Below, piece after piece: positions 36,311 to 40,613 of a DNA stretch of 64,000 nucleotides (positions are counted from its first letter, which is position 1; the number at the start of each line of letters is the position of its first letter). The stretch is from positions 4,402,001 to 4,466,000 of the forward strand of contig NZ_CP033972.1 in NCBI RefSeq assembly GCF_003855095.1, in the 5' to 3' direction. The notes beneath the pieces were generated by a model. It was not told the DNA's origin, searched no databases, and saw only the letters and a program-made list of their open reading frames with translations. The translations under genes were made by a program, and so were the position numbers. Source of the stretch: Gordonia insulae (GTDB taxonomy: Bacteria > Actinomycetota > Actinomycetes > Mycobacteriales > Mycobacteriaceae).

Positions 36311-36793
36311 GTGCGCGGAGACGGTGACGGCTGGGTGATCGATCCGGACGGCTCGCGTTATTGGGGACGAAACGGTGCGGCGGGCCTGTTGTTGCGCGCA
36401 CCGCTGTCGGACGGTTCGATGTCGATCCTGCTGCAGCATCGCGCGGTGTGGTCGCATCAGGGCGGGACATGGGGTCTGCCCGGCGGCGCACGCGATTCGC
36501 ACGAGAGCGCCATCGACACGGCGATCCGCGAAGCCGACGAGGAGGCCGGCATCGGCGGGACCGACCTGCGGGTGGTCGCGGCGCTGGTCACCCATCAGAC
36601 CCCCAGCGGGTGGACCTACACCACCGTGATCGCCGAGACCGATCGGCCGGTGCACACGATCGCCAACGGGGAGTCCGCCGAGTTGCGGTGGGTACCCGAG
36701 GGTGACGTCGAGGGGCTGCCACTGCATCCCGCGTTCGGCACCGCCTGGCCCGGCCTGCGCGAGCGGATCAGCTCGCTCGACCCGCAGAGCTGA
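36311..36793 (+). CDS. mutT3: Nudix hydrolase MutT3
   Basis: A 160-residue Nudix enzyme. The Nudix box spans G59 to I81 with E65, R73-E74 and E77-E78 all conserved. The position next to glnX matches mycobacterial mutT3 (Rv0413), a hydrolase of oxidised or modified nucleotides such as 8-oxo-dGTP. The GTG start has GGAGG five bases upstream; the open frame continues far upstream without support. The last 26 bases overlap the end of the convergent LeuA-domain gene. Confidence 0.88.
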   Translation: MRGDGDGWVIDPDGSRYWGRNGAAGLLLRAPLSDGSMSILLQHRAVWSHQGGTWGLPGGARDSHESAIDTAIREADEEAGIGGTDLRVVAALVTHQTPSGWTYTTVIAETDRPVHTIANGESAELRWVPEGDVEGLPLHPAFGTAWPGLRERISSLDPQS

Positions 36794-37268
36794 CCCGAAG
36801 GCGGTTCGCGCCGGCGATCAGGGCGTTGACGTTGGCCTCGTCGGCGGAGTCCCCGCTGCCATATGCCCAGCACTGCCGGTCGTCGCGCTCGCACAGCAGG
36901 AACGTCGTGATCACGCCGTCGACCGATCGCTGATGGAGTCGGACGATCTGCACGGGCGCGCCGATGTCGTGCAGCATCGACGTCATGGCGCCGATCGGCC
37001 CGGACGCGCTGGCCTGCAGGGACACGATCCGATCCGCGTCGGCGATGGTGGCCCGGCAGGTGACCATGTCCTCGCGCCCGGCCTCGACGCTCCAGGCGCC
37101 GAGGCGGATACCGCCGGTGGGTGCGTACTCGTCGGTGAATCCTTGCCAGGTCATTCCGTATGCCTCCTCGCGGATGCCGCGCGGGAGTGCGCAGCCGAAT
37201 CGTGTGGCGAACGGATCCCGGGACGTCTCATACGGCCAGGATTGGTGAGAAAGATGAAGGTTGTGCAT
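36768..37268 (-). CDS. Orphan LeuA-type regulatory (LeuA_dimer) domain protein
   Basis: A 166-residue protein whose second half (SASGPIGAMTSMLHDIGAPVQIVRLHQRS; CWAYGSGDSADEANVNALIAGANRL) reads like the C-terminal allosteric domain of 2-isopropylmalate synthase, including the GPI/GPV-type turn and the W(A/G)xGxxxxxxxA...NR end. The catalytic TIM barrel is absent. The first ~50 residues (WPYETSRDPFATRFGCALP) are unlike LeuA. Function is unknown; it may bind a branched-chain amino acid or pair with full-length LeuA. A leader peptide and hairpins lie upstream. Confidence 0.6.
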   Translation of the reverse strand: MHNLHLSHQSWPYETSRDPFATRFGCALPRGIREEAYGMTWQGFTDEYAPTGGIRLGAWSVEAGREDMVTCRATIADADRIVSLQASASGPIGAMTSMLHDIGAPVQIVRLHQRSVDGVITTFLLCERDDRQCWAYGSGDSADEANVNALIAGANRLRVSSAGRAS

Positions 37269-37321
37269 CTCGAGGTTTCGTTTCGGTCGACAACTCGGTG
37301 ACCGACGGGCAGACAGCGCAA

Positions 37322-37364
37322 CGACCCCGCAGCGGGGGGTCGGTCAGATCAGACCCCGCTGCGG
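37322..37364 (-). promoter_or_regulatory. Putative attenuator: mutually exclusive hairpins
   Basis: In minus-strand RNA, CCGCAGCGGGG (from 37364) can pair over 11 bases with CCCCGCTGCGG further on. A second hairpin, CGACCCC/GGGGTCG (37342-37336 with 37328-37322), uses part of the same downstream bases. The first arm lies inside the last codons of a 15-codon leader ORF, so ribosome position could choose between structures. Confidence 0.5.
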
Positions 37365-37396
37365 CGGGTTACGAGGGCGCTCTGCATGCACAACAT
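37349..37396 (-). CDS. Putative leader peptide (15 aa) upstream of LeuA-domain gene
   Basis: ATG opens a 15-codon frame reading MLCMQSALVTRRSGV and stopping with TGA. A TAGGCT -10 box ends 10 bases before the ATG, so the message would begin almost at the codon. The peptide contains one Cys early and two Leu, with rare-type neighbours. Its final codons form one arm of an alternative hairpin. Leader-peptide attenuation is known for leuA in actinobacteria. Which amino acid is sensed here is unclear. Confidence 0.5.
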   Translation of the reverse strand: MLCMQSALVTRRSGV

Positions 37397-37406
37397 GGTG
37401 TCGGCC

Positions 37407-37412
37407 AGCCTA
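37407..37412 (-). promoter_or_regulatory. -10 element of leader peptide / LeuA-domain transcript
   Basis: TAGGCT on the minus strand, 10 bases before the leader ATG and about 140 bases before the LeuA-domain gene start. Confidence 0.45.
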
Positions 37413-37443
37413 GACCCGCCGCGGTCGCGACGGCAAACGTCTT

Positions 37444-37902
37444 TCATCGGTACGCGACGGGGAAGCCCGGGCCCGGCTCGGGCACGACGTCGCGGGCGGT
37501 GATCTCCACACCGCATCCGTCGCATTCGAGGTGGGTGTGGGCCTCGCCGGTGCAGTCGCGGTGCCGGTAGTGCACCGGCGGGCCGTCCGGTGCGAGGTAC
37601 TTGTCGCCGAAGTCGCGCAGCGCGATGAGGATCGGATAGACGTCGTGGCCCTTCGGGGTCAGCCGGTACTCCTCGTGGGCCGCGCCGTCGGGTCGGTGTT
37701 TCACCAGGAATCCGTGCTCGACGAGCCGGTCGAGGCGGTCCTGCAGACGGCCACGGGAGATGCCCATCGCGGAGTGGAAAGCGGTGAAGCGTCGCACCCC
37801 GGTGAAGGCGAACTTCATGATCAGGAGCGTCCATCGGTCACCGAGTATCACCAGCGGCCGGGTGATCGAGCACGGCTCGTCGGCGAGCTCCTCGTAGCGC
37901 AT
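37444..37902 (-). CDS. HxlR-family transcriptional regulator
   Basis: A 152-residue winged-helix regulator. The HxlR pattern CSITRPLVILGDRWTLLIMK (residues 11-30), FTAFHSAMGISRGRLQDRL and a LTPKG wing end are clear. Beyond the usual ~110 residues it has a tail with C117, C127 and C130 and several histidines (HYRHRDCTGEAHTHLECDGC), which may bind metal or sense redox state. A TAGAAT box 7 bases before this ATG favours it over the ATG three codons upstream, which overlaps the box. It is divergent from a nitroreductase gene with two palindromes between, the likely operators. Confidence 0.88.
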   Translation of the reverse strand: MRYEELADEPCSITRPLVILGDRWTLLIMKFAFTGVRRFTAFHSAMGISRGRLQDRLDRLVEHGFLVKHRPDGAAHEEYRLTPKGHDVYPILIALRDFGDKYLAPDGPPVHYRHRDCTGEAHTHLECDGCGVEITARDVVPEPGPGFPVAYR

Positions 37903-37909
37903 GATCGGC

Positions 37910-37915
37910 ATTCTA
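37910..37915 (-). promoter_or_regulatory. -10 element of hxlR-type gene, leaderless
   Basis: TAGAAT on the minus strand, 7 bases before the ATG at 37902 and close to the first operator palindrome. Confidence 0.5.
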
Positions 37916-37923
37916 CGCCCGAT

Positions 37924-37940
37924 GGTTCCAAAATGAGACC
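37924..37940. promoter_or_regulatory. HxlR operator candidate, site 1 (imperfect)
   Basis: GGTTCC-AAAAT-GAGACC is an imperfect copy of site 2: the right half is identical and the left half differs at two bases. Its start is 33 bp from that of site 2, about three helical turns. Confidence 0.6.
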
Positions 37941-37948
37941 GCCTCGGG

Positions 37949-37954
37949 TAGCGT
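37949..37954 (+). promoter_or_regulatory. -10 element of nitroreductase gene
   Basis: TAGCGT lies between the two palindromes, and the expected transcription start falls inside site 2, so a bound regulator would block it. Confidence 0.45.
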
Positions 37955-37956
37955 CA

Positions 37957-37973
37957 GGTCTCGAAATGAGACC
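37957..37973. promoter_or_regulatory. HxlR operator candidate, site 2 (perfect)
   Basis: GGTCTC-GAAAT-GAGACC is a perfect 6-5-6 dyad placed between the -10 element and the ribosome-binding site of the nitroreductase gene. Confidence 0.65.
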
Positions 37974-37988
37974 GCGGAGGTGGATCAG

Positions 37989-38690
37989 ATGACGCAGACC
38001 GAGATGACCCATGCCGTCGATGCGATGGCGGCACTCGAGCAGATCATGGACGACCGCTGGACCTGTCGGCAGTTCCTGCCGGACGCGGTCCCGCGAGCCG
38101 AGCTCGAGCGACTGTTGCGGCTGGCGCAGCGCACGCCGTCGTGGTGCAACACCCAGCCCTGGCAGGTCCACGTGACCGAGGGCGCGGCCACCACGCGGCT
38201 GCGCGACACCCTGCTCGGCCATGTCGACGCGGGTGGCGCCATCTCCACCGACATCGACTGGCCGCCCGGGTACGAGGGTGTCTATCAGGCACGTCGGCGG
38301 GAGTGCGGACACCAGTTGTACGAGACCCTCGGCATCACGCGCGAGGACAAGGTCGGCAAGCTCATGCAGATGCGCCGCAACTTCGAACTCTTCGACGCGC
38401 CGCATGTCGCGATCATCACCACCACCGCGTCGTTGGGTACCTACGGGGCGGTCGACTGCGGGCTCTACATCGGCAGTTTCCTGATGGCCGCGCAGGCGCT
38501 CGGCCTCGGCGCCGCGCCCCAGGCCGCACTCGCCTCGTACTCCGGCGTCCTGCGAGACCATCTCGACATCGCCGACGATCGGCAGGTCGTCGCGGGGATC
38601 TCGTTCGGCTACCCGGATACCGAAGCGCCGGTGAACACCTTCCGTACGACACGCGCCGACCTCGACGAGGCGGTCACGTTCGTCACCTGA
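37989..38690 (+). CDS. Nitroreductase family flavoprotein
   Basis: A 233-residue FMN-dependent oxidoreductase. The N-terminal RWTCRQF with [10 protein letters not shown] (residues about 49-58) forms the FMN phosphate/ribityl site, and [19 protein letters not shown] is the conserved helix of the fold. Such enzymes reduce nitro groups, quinones or enones with NAD(P)H. GGAGG is eight bases before this ATG; a GTG nine bases upstream overlaps that site. The divergent HxlR regulator probably controls it. The last eight bases overlap the convergent thiE gene. Confidence 0.88.
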
Positions 38691-39390
38691 TCGGCCGTGC
38701 GGTGACACCGGCGACGAGGTGTGCGGCCGCCGAACGCGGATCATCGGCGCCGGTGATCGCCCGCACCACGACGACTCGTTCGGCGCCGGCGGCGGTCACC
38801 TCGGGCAACCGGTCGGCGTCGACCCCACCGATCGCGAACCACGGCTTGGCCGGCGCAGCGGCCGCGGCGGCCCGGACGAGGTCCAGACCTGCGGCCTCGC
38901 GACCCGGTTTGGTGGGGGTCGCCCAGCAGGGACCCACGCAGAAGTAGTCGACGTCGGCGTCGGCGATCGCGCCGCGCATCTGGTCGGCGTCGTGGGTCGA
39001 CAGTCCGATGACGACGTCGGGACCGACGATCTCCCGCGCGATCGCGGCGGGCAGATCGCCCTGTCCGACGTGCAGCACGTCGGCACCGGCGAGTCGTGCG
39101 ATGTCGGCCCGGTCGTTGACCGCGAGGAGTGCGCCGCGCTCGCGCGTGACCTGGCGCAATCGAGCGAGGATGGCCAGTTCCTCCCGTGCCTCGAGCGTGC
39201 CGAAGGCCGATTCGCCGGCCGATCCCTTGTCACGGATCTGCACGATGTCCACGCCGCCGTCGAGCGCCGCCGACACGAAGTCGATCAGGTCGCCGCGTTC
39301 CCGCCGGGCATCGGTGCAGAGGTAGAGGCGAGCCGATGACAGACGGTCGTACCGCGGGCCCCGCGGAGATGTCCCGATGGAGGTTGTCAC
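38683..39390 (-). CDS. thiE: Thiamine-phosphate synthase
   Basis: A 235-residue TIM-barrel enzyme that joins the pyrimidine (HMP-PP) and thiazole phosphate moieties into thiamine phosphate. [14 protein letters not shown] holds the diphosphate-binding lysine and arginine. [26 protein letters not shown] and [10 protein letters not shown] are further family motifs, and the C-terminal WFAIGGV helps bind phosphate. The GTG start follows a TACCGT box by 7 bases. It is divergent from the riboswitch-controlled thiOSG genes and not itself downstream of the riboswitch. Confidence 0.93.
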
Positions 39391-39397
39391 CGTCGCA

Positions 39398-39403
39398 ACG
39401 GTA
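39398..39403 (-). promoter_or_regulatory. -10 element of thiE, leaderless
   Basis: TACCGT on the minus strand, 7 bases before the thiE GTG. It shares two bases with the plus-strand TAGTGT box. Confidence 0.5.
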
Positions 39404-39407
39404 GTGT
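39402..39407 (+). promoter_or_regulatory. -10 element of riboswitch-thiOSG transcript
   Basis: TAGTGT places the transcript start near 39414, just before the first stem of the TPP aptamer. Confidence 0.45.
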
Positions 39408-39416
39408 GGCGGGCAA

Positions 39417-39510
39417 GACACGGGAGCCCGGGGTACGGCGGGCTGAGAGTGCGGGTCGAGCCCCCGCTGACCGTTTGACCTGATCCGGGTAATGCCGGCG
39501 AAGGAAGGAT
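39417..39510 (+). ncRNA. TPP riboswitch (THI element)
   Basis: The thiamine-pyrophosphate aptamer is recognisable by CTGAGA at 39443-39448, ACCTGATC at 39478-39485, GGGTAATGCC at 39487-39496 and the terminal GAAGGAAGG. The last segment doubles as the ribosome-binding site of thiO (AAGGAAGG, about 12 bases before the GTG), which points to translational control: TPP binding would hide it. No terminator hairpin is seen between aptamer and thiO. Confidence 0.93.
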
Positions 39511-39519
39511 GCCGTCATC

Positions 39520-40613
39520 GTGACCGTTCACCGATCTGATCCGCGCCCGCGGGCACTCGCCGTCATCGGCGGCGGGGTCATCGGGCTGACCTGTGCACTT
39601 GCCGCCGCCGACGCCGGCCGTCGGGTGTGCGTGTACGACGCGGGCCCACATGCGCGCGCGGCGTGGGTCGCCGCGGGGATGCTCGGTTCACTCGGTGAAG
39701 GCCACCCCGGTGAGGATGAGTTGCTGGCGCTCTCGGTCGACTCCGTTCGCCGTTGGCCCGACCTCCTCGCGCGCCTCGGTGACCCGGCCGTGTCGGCCGC
39801 CGCCGATTCGTTGTTCGTCGCGGGCTCGTCGACCGACGCCGAACACCTGTCCACGCTCGCGGAGTTCGTCTGGGCCCGACAGCCGCGGGCGCATGACGAC
39901 CTCCGGCCGGTCGGCATCGCGGAGATCCGCCGGATGGAACCAGGACTCAGCTCGCGCATGCACAGCGGCTACCTGGCCGTCGGTGAAGGTGCCGTGGACA
40001 ATCGGCGCCTGATCGACCGGTTGCGGGCGGCGCTGCTGGATGCAGGAGGCGAGGTCGTCGAGCAGCGAGTCGATGATCTGGGCGCCCTCGCGGCCGACGA
40101 CGTACTCGTCGCCGCGGGGCTCGGCACCCGCTCGCTGGTGCCCGACGTCCGGCTGCATGCCGCCAAAGGGGAGATCCTCCGGCTGCGGCGCACCCGCTGG
40201 TCGGTGCCGCCGCCGTCGCGCGTGATCCGTGCGCGGCTGCACGGCCGGTCCGTATACCTGGTGCCGCGCGACGACGGAATCGTCGTCGGTGCAACCCAAT
40301 ACGAGCCGTTCGACGAGGCGAGCGCACTGCCCGAGGTGGGCGGCGTGGCCGACCTGCTCGCGGACGCGCTCGAGCTGATGCCGGGCCTGCGGACCTACGA
40401 ACTGACCGAGGCCGGTGCCGGCCTACGCCCGTGCTCGGCCGACGGACTGCCGATCATCCGGCGCGTGGACGAGCGGGTCGTCGTGGCCACCGGCCACGGC
40501 CGCAACGGAATCCTGTTGGCGCCGTACACCGCCGACAGGGTGATGACGCTGTTGGACGGGCCGGCCGAGGCCGGCCGCGACGAGGTGGCCACGTCCACCG
40601 GAGGAGTGAAGCG

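What the first reader, a model, noticed from the sequence alone, without database searches (positions are those of the whole stretch)
37322..37412. Putative ribosome-controlled attenuator upstream of an orphan LeuA-domain gene
On the minus strand a TAGGCT box starts a message whose first ORF is the 15-residue MLCMQSALVTRRSGV. Its last codons contain CCGCAGCGGGG, able to pair over 11 bases with a downstream segment that otherwise forms the CGACCCC/GGGGTCG hairpin. A ribosome reaching the stop would cover the first arm and allow the second hairpin; a stalled ribosome would allow the first. This is the logic of leader-peptide attenuation, known in actinobacteria for leuA and other amino acid genes. 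The peptide does not have a long run of one codon, so the signal sensed is unclear.
Basis: partly seen in the sequence, partly recalled or inferred. Interest (0 to 1): 0.7.

Follow-up and report, generated by a model that had tools for sequence, protein, structure and literature searches.

The report
LEU-type attenuator before orphan LeuA domain
A short RNA leader with its own tiny gene, related to the switch in front of the leucine-synthesis gene leuA, sits before a stand-alone copy of LeuA's amino-acid-sensing domain and is kept nearly unchanged in Gordonia, Rhodococcus and related genera, so it probably reports when branched-chain amino acids run short.

The parts
37431..37436 (-). -35-like TTGCCG, 18 nt before the -10 box
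   Evidence: Read; a TTGNNN at 16-19 nt spacing occurs in 88 of the 99 regions with a TANNNT box. The sigma-70 consensus scan did not call it.
37407..37412 (-). -10 box TAGGCT
   Evidence: TANNNT 6-10 nt before the leader start in 99 of 100 regions
37349..37396 (-). leader ORF MLCMQSALVTRRSGV*
   Evidence: 133 of 135 regions that have the element carry such a short ATG/GTG ORF
37370..37375 (-). branched-chain codons CTC GTA
   Evidence: In-frame GTA in 133 of 133 leaders, Leu codon before it in 108
37368..37373 (-). base helix P1, 5' strand CGTAAC
   Evidence: Weak in Gordonia (12 of 58 at shuffle p<=0.04), better outside (37 of 74)
37354..37364 (-). arm 1, CCGCAGCGGGG, pairs with arm 2 (helix P2)
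   Evidence: 99.2% (upper) and 97.8% (lower) of cells paired in 132 sequences
37339..37345 (-). A, GACCGAC, pairs with B (pseudoknot)
   Evidence: 97.8% of cells paired in 132 sequences, 13 cells changed on both sides
37327..37337 (-). arm 2, CCCCGCTGCGG
   Evidence: As arm 1
   Evidence: Read; not called as a terminator
37317..37322 (-). base helix P1, 3' strand GTTGCG
   Evidence: see P1 above
37300..37306 (-). B, GTCGGTC, pairs with A or with C
37283..37288 (-). C, GACCGA, start-region strand that can pair with B
   Evidence: TCGGTC:GACCGA is the best B-C helix in 38 of 58 Gordonia rows
36768..37268 (-). stand-alone LeuA regulatory (LeuA_dimer) domain protein, 166 aa

Best explanation
A ribosome-sensing leader of the LEU type, homologous to the leuA leader, controls a stand-alone LeuA regulatory-domain gene in response to branched-chain aminoacyl-tRNA supply. 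Shown by comparison: promoter, leader ORF with rare Val/Leu/Ile codons just before arm 1, helix P2 (arm 1:arm 2), pseudoknot helix A:B, competing helix B:C, and homology to the leuA element. Inferred: with ample Ile/Leu/Val the ribosome reaches the stop codon between arm 1 and A and covers A, so B pairs with C and hampers the start (off). When they are short, it stalls on the codons that form the 5' strand of P1; P2 plus A:B form, B leaves C and the start opens (on). Rho may add a transcriptional effect when the gene is not translated. I put the whole statement without the switch direction at the confidence given, and the stated direction at about 0.35.
For: Element in 135 of 138 upstream regions, from 26 genus codes. 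In-frame GTA in 133 of 133 leaders; GTA 184 of 238 Val codons against 2.2% in 32 window ORFs, ATT 30 of 64 against 1.9%, CTT 46 of 201 against 1.1%. A GTA starts 8-11 nt before arm 1 in 132 of 132 rows. Leaders that end inside arm 1 in several lineages lose the RRSGV tail but keep Leu-Val or Val in frame. P2 and A:B pairing 97.8-99.2%. leuA-type leaders share the layout in 22 of 22 regions, two of them weaker; model R1 finds a second copy in 19 of 19 Gordonia genomes. With a ribosome mask on the Leu codons the leuA leader folds into A:B; without ribosome or at the stop, into B:C. A:B duplex medians (-12.6, -13.4) are below the B-C region's (-9.5, -10.4 kcal/mol). M. tuberculosis ilvB1 is controlled by a branched-chain uORF with GUA (PMC13236596, abstract and passages).
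Against: Masked folds of the orphan leaders (window, L144, L121, L188) did not switch to A:B, and nested folding cannot score the pseudoknot; mean unpaired probability of the start region hardly moved or moved the wrong way, for leuA too (0.44 none, 0.45 stalled, 0.42 at stop; window 0.42, 0.48, 0.42; L144 0.59, 0.42, 0.42). B:C beats shuffles at p<=0.04 in only 40% of Gordonia rows and 23% of others; P1 in 21% and 50%. Double-change cells alone are weak: one slid control of A:B also has 13 and one of lower P2 has 6 against 5. The window's own leader has only one Leu and one Val in its block. In S. coelicolor leuA, leader mutations had an effect but not one fitting classical attenuation (reported in PMC1262725). 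No expression data.
Confidence: 0.6

Rival explanations
1. Classical transcription attenuator: CGACCCC/GGGGTCG is a terminator hairpin and arm 1:arm 2 the antiterminator, chosen by ribosome position.
For: The two helices exclude each other and are conserved; with a stall mask the window's leader does fold the hairpin; transcription attenuation with a branched-chain uORF works at M. tuberculosis ilvB1 (PMC13236596, passages).
Against: No terminator-like site with a T-run in 37150-37500 (0 found). It leaves the conserved A:B helix and B unexplained. In the masked folds the hairpin forms on stalling, which would turn the gene off in starvation.
Confidence: 0.17
2. The LEU-type element is bound by a regulatory protein or other trans factor, as its discoverers preferred; the ORF contributes little by its codons.
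For: Arm, A and B sequences are nearly invariant across genera; the authors argue for protein binding in leuA (PMC1262725).
Against: Codon bias toward rare GTA/ATT/CTT, frame retention in 133 of 135, and loss of the peptide tail with Leu-Val kept.
Confidence: 0.15
3. Constitutive translation aid: the leaderless leader ORF only recruits ribosomes and the helices protect the RNA; nothing is sensed.
For: A paper proposes that leader genes raise downstream translation (PMC4833913, search listing only).
Against: Does not explain competing conserved helices or the branched-chain codon bias.
Confidence: 0.06

Closest known systems
LEU element of actinobacterial leuA (Seliverstov et al. 2005, PMC1262725; parts 1 and 2 of 3 of the text read)
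   Same: Short upstream ORF, two-helix pseudoknot, alternative hairpin, overlap of codons with a base stem; the leuA-type leaders read here share arms, stop position and A/B strands.
   Different: Gene is a stand-alone LeuA regulatory domain, not leuA; codons are Ile/Leu/Val rather than a leucine run; the base strand pairs after arm 2, not shown to pair with a Shine-Dalgarno box.
Branched-chain leader attenuators of ilvB1 (M. tuberculosis, PMC13236596, abstract and passages) and leuL of C. glutamicum (PMC8709942, PMC4046766, passages)
   Same: Short ORF with branched-chain codons, including GUA at ilvB1, upstream of branched-chain genes.
   Different: ilvB1 uses a Rho-independent terminator with U-tract; none was found here. 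No pseudoknot is mentioned in the passages seen.
Regulatory domain of LeuA (PDB 3hps, 1sr9, 3fig) and of citramalate synthase (3f6h)
   Different: There it is the C-terminal part of an enzyme; here it is encoded alone (166 aa).

Membership tests
LEU element (leuA leader, PMC1262725) | Pseudoknot of two helices following the leader ORF | tested here: met
   P2 and A:B pair in 97.8-99.2% of cells of 132 sequences
[quoted passage not shown]
   ORF present, but the block is Ile/Leu/Val; the window has one Leu and one Val
LEU element (leuA leader, PMC1262725) | Lies upstream of leuA | tested here: not met
   Gene is a stand-alone LeuA regulatory domain; the same genome's leuA has its own element
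LEU element (leuA leader, PMC1262725) | Base stem between leader codons and the gene's Shine-Dalgarno box | tested here: inconclusive
   A base stem P1 exists outside Gordonia but pairs just after arm 2; weak in Gordonia
Classical transcription attenuator | Leader peptide rich in codons of the regulated amino acids | tested here: met
Classical transcription attenuator | GC-rich terminator hairpin followed by a U-tract | tested here: not met
   0 terminator-like sites in 37150-37500
RNA families of Rfam 15 | Match at gathering score | tested here: not met
   Only a TPP riboswitch elsewhere in the window; two sub-threshold chance matches near the element
LeuA_dimer domain (PF08502) | Pfam gathering score | tested here: not met
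   18.2 bits against 24.9
LeuA_dimer domain (PF08502) | LeuA regulatory-domain fold | tested here: met
LeuA_dimer domain (PF08502) | Binds a branched-chain amino acid | not testable with these tools
   No binding data

The most novel reading that the evidence does not exclude
A two-input branched-chain amino acid sensor conserved over much of a bacterial family: a LEU-type pseudoknot leader reads Ile/Leu/Val tRNA charging through rare codons and sets the amount of a free amino-acid-binding LeuA regulatory domain. That domain acts in trans, either by pairing with LeuA or another branched-chain enzyme to tune its feedback inhibition, or by binding LEU-type RNA, the trans factor that the 2005 authors looked for.
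Probability: 0.25. Interest if true: 0.8.

Novelty: new variant of a known kind. Interest (0 to 1): 0.6.

Why it matters
It adds a second, widely conserved gene to a riboregulator described only for leuA (and one transposase), and supplies about 130 natural variants with which to settle how LEU elements work, an open question since 2005. It also points to an unstudied stand-alone amino-acid-sensing domain, found in Gordonia, Rhodococcus and related genera, as part of branched-chain amino acid control.

Tried and rejected
Described RNA family: no match at the element (for leuA). Intrinsic terminator: none found. Folding energy alone: z -1.67, not used as evidence. Folds with ribosome masks as proof of the on/off logic: they did not show it for the orphan leaders, and start accessibility hardly changed even for leuA. 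Plasmid copies: no match. One search found nothing because my pattern lacked one C; one search answered the question. Print record: full-text searches (open-licence PMC papers only) gave no paper on the orphan gene or its leader peptides. Foldseek against pdb was not obtained; the VIA-align result re-ranks Foldseek's matches only. Rows dropped: L012 and L049 (contig ends, no upstream sequence); of the 103 references printed, 81 went into A2, leaving out L012 and near-identical ones by eye.

Full report
Observation. The described pieces are in the sequence. On the minus strand, TAGGCT (37412-37407) precedes the ORF MLCMQSALVTRRSGV* (37396-37349). Its end holds CCGCAGCGGGG (37364-37354), able to pair over 11 bp with CCCCGCTGCGG (37337-37327), part of which also makes the hairpin CGACCCC/GGGGTCG. 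The next gene (37268-36768) encodes 166 aa with a sub-threshold LeuA_dimer match (18.2 bits, cut-off 24.9). The nearest named relatives are 13 Gordonia and 5 Rhodococcus records, so the window is very probably Gordonia.

The leader is conserved. I examined 138 distinct upstream regions: 103 and 35 more; they cover 27 genus codes. The element is present in 135. Three regions of one genus code (g3) lack it, and a few distant ones match weakly (L197 and L202 score 31, L191 37, against shuffle maxima of 23-26). A short ATG/GTG leader ORF is present in 133 of the 135; L156 is shifted by two extra G, and L194 has the frame but no ATG/GTG start within 60 nt. In the set, TANNNT lies 6-10 nt before the leader start in 99 of 100 regions, against 0.6% of random window positions, with a TTGNNN 16-19 nt further up in 88 of the 99. 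The leader is therefore probably translated leaderless or nearly so (inference).

What the leader reads. All 133 leaders have an in-frame GTA; the codon before it is Leu in 108. Of 1689 leader codons 616 are Ile, Leu or Val (the final Val of RRSGV included), and 130 of 133 leaders have a run of two or more. Codons rare in the window's own ORFs dominate: GTA 184 of 238 Val codons, last codon not counted (2.2% in 32 window ORFs chosen by length and third-position GC), ATT 30 of 64 Ile (1.9%), CTT 46 of 201 Leu (1.1%). In several lineages the ORF ends at a TAG or TAA inside arm 1 (L068, L066, L073, L069, L075; L125, L126; L183; L141), so the RRSGV tail is lost while Leu-Val stays in frame with the start. 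This argues that the codons, not the peptide tail, are selected. Outside Gordonia part of the GTA conservation may come from helix P1.

Structure. On 132 distinct sequences arm 1:arm 2 pairs in 99.2% (upper) and 97.8% (lower) of cells and GACCGAC:GTCGGTC (A:B) in 97.8%, with 9, 5 and 13 cells changed on both sides. Sliding the partner by 1-3 columns drops pairing to 25-62%, 21-81% and 6-50%. One slid version of A:B also has 13 double-change cells and one of lower P2 has 6, so double changes alone are weak here; the pairing percentage is the stronger measure. The tool's counts on 81 sequences agree (98.6% and 99.1% paired, covariation score above 500 of 500 shuffles). B can instead pair with C; in many non-Gordonia regions C carries GGAAGACC with a Shine-Dalgarno-like AGGAAG (read). 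B:C beats shuffles at p<=0.04 in 40% of 58 Gordonia rows and 23% of 74 others. A base helix P1 between the GTA-containing codons and the segment after arm 2 does so in 21% and 50%, with matched variants outside Gordonia such as GUAGUUCA:UGAGCUAC, GUAGUACA:UGUGCUAC and AGUAGC:GCUACU.

Relation to leuA. The next best match in the own genome lies just before leuA. All 22 leuA-type upstream regions read have the layout, most with MQRALLLGCRGGV* or close; L161 and L162 are weaker. Model R1, built only from orphan elements, finds two or more places in 19 of 19 Gordonia genomes: the orphan element and a second one. I opened the second place in 17 of the 19 and it precedes LeuA in all 17; in G001 and G008 its position fits the LeuA hit. 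G001 has a third place (L235) whose gene I could not assign, and L248, from another family, is also unassigned. This is the LEU element of Seliverstov et al. 2005: upstream ORF, pseudoknot, alternative hairpin, unsettled mechanism, described for leuA and one transposase. Two of its features, a leucine run and leuA as the gene, are not met here, so I call it a homologous variant, not a member.

Mechanism. With a ribosome-sized mask on the Leu codons the leuA leader folds into A:B; without ribosome, or with one at the stop, into B:C. I carry this logic to the orphan gene: enough Ile/Leu/Val, ribosome at the stop, A covered, B:C closed, off; shortage, stall on the P1 strand, pseudoknot, start open, on. 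Against it: the masked folds of four orphan leaders did not switch, nested folding cannot score the pseudoknot, and the computed openness of the start region hardly changed or went the wrong way, in leuA too. In its favour, A:B duplexes are stronger than the B-C hairpins before any pseudoknot penalty (medians -12.6 and -13.4 against -9.5 and -10.4 kcal/mol). No T-run terminator was found. M. tuberculosis ilvB1 shows that a branched-chain leader with GUA works, there by transcription attenuation (PMC13236596, abstract and passages).

Verdict. The finding is real and stronger than its first description: a conserved, apparently unreported variant of a known riboregulator in front of an unstudied gene. 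Open: the direction of the switch and what the free domain does.

Noticed in passing
39410-39523 (+): TPP riboswitch (57.6 bits) ahead of plus-strand thiamine-type genes; a thiE-like gene (38683-39651, minus) lies upstream of the orphan gene. ThiE and a NUDIX gene flank the orphan in 37 and 40 of 45 loci tested, in none of the 5 Rhodococcus loci.
   Followed up: partly
37444-38690: HxlR-type regulator and a divergent nitroreductase lie between thiE and the orphan in the window; neither was found in the 45 other loci tested, so they look like a local insertion.
   Followed up: partly
L068, L066, L073, L069, L075, L125, L126, L183, L141: Leaders that end at a TAG or TAA inside arm 1 instead of at RRSGV*, in at least four genus codes.
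   Followed up: partly
L187, L190, L195: Genus code g3 (small genomes) keeps the stand-alone domain, with a DPF.ARFGHRLPRGLR-like N-terminus, but no leader element was found within the 1.5 kb searched.
   Followed up: no
L161, L162, L235: Diverged LEU-type leaders (SLLLRRHGGA, FLLLRRHGGV, RLLRCHGGV endings); L161 and L162 precede LeuA-type frames, the gene at L235 is unassigned.
   Followed up: no
37154 (-): A strong GAGGAGG precedes an internal ATG (residue 39 of the orphan ORF); it could be a second start or only the codons of the REEA motif.
   Followed up: no
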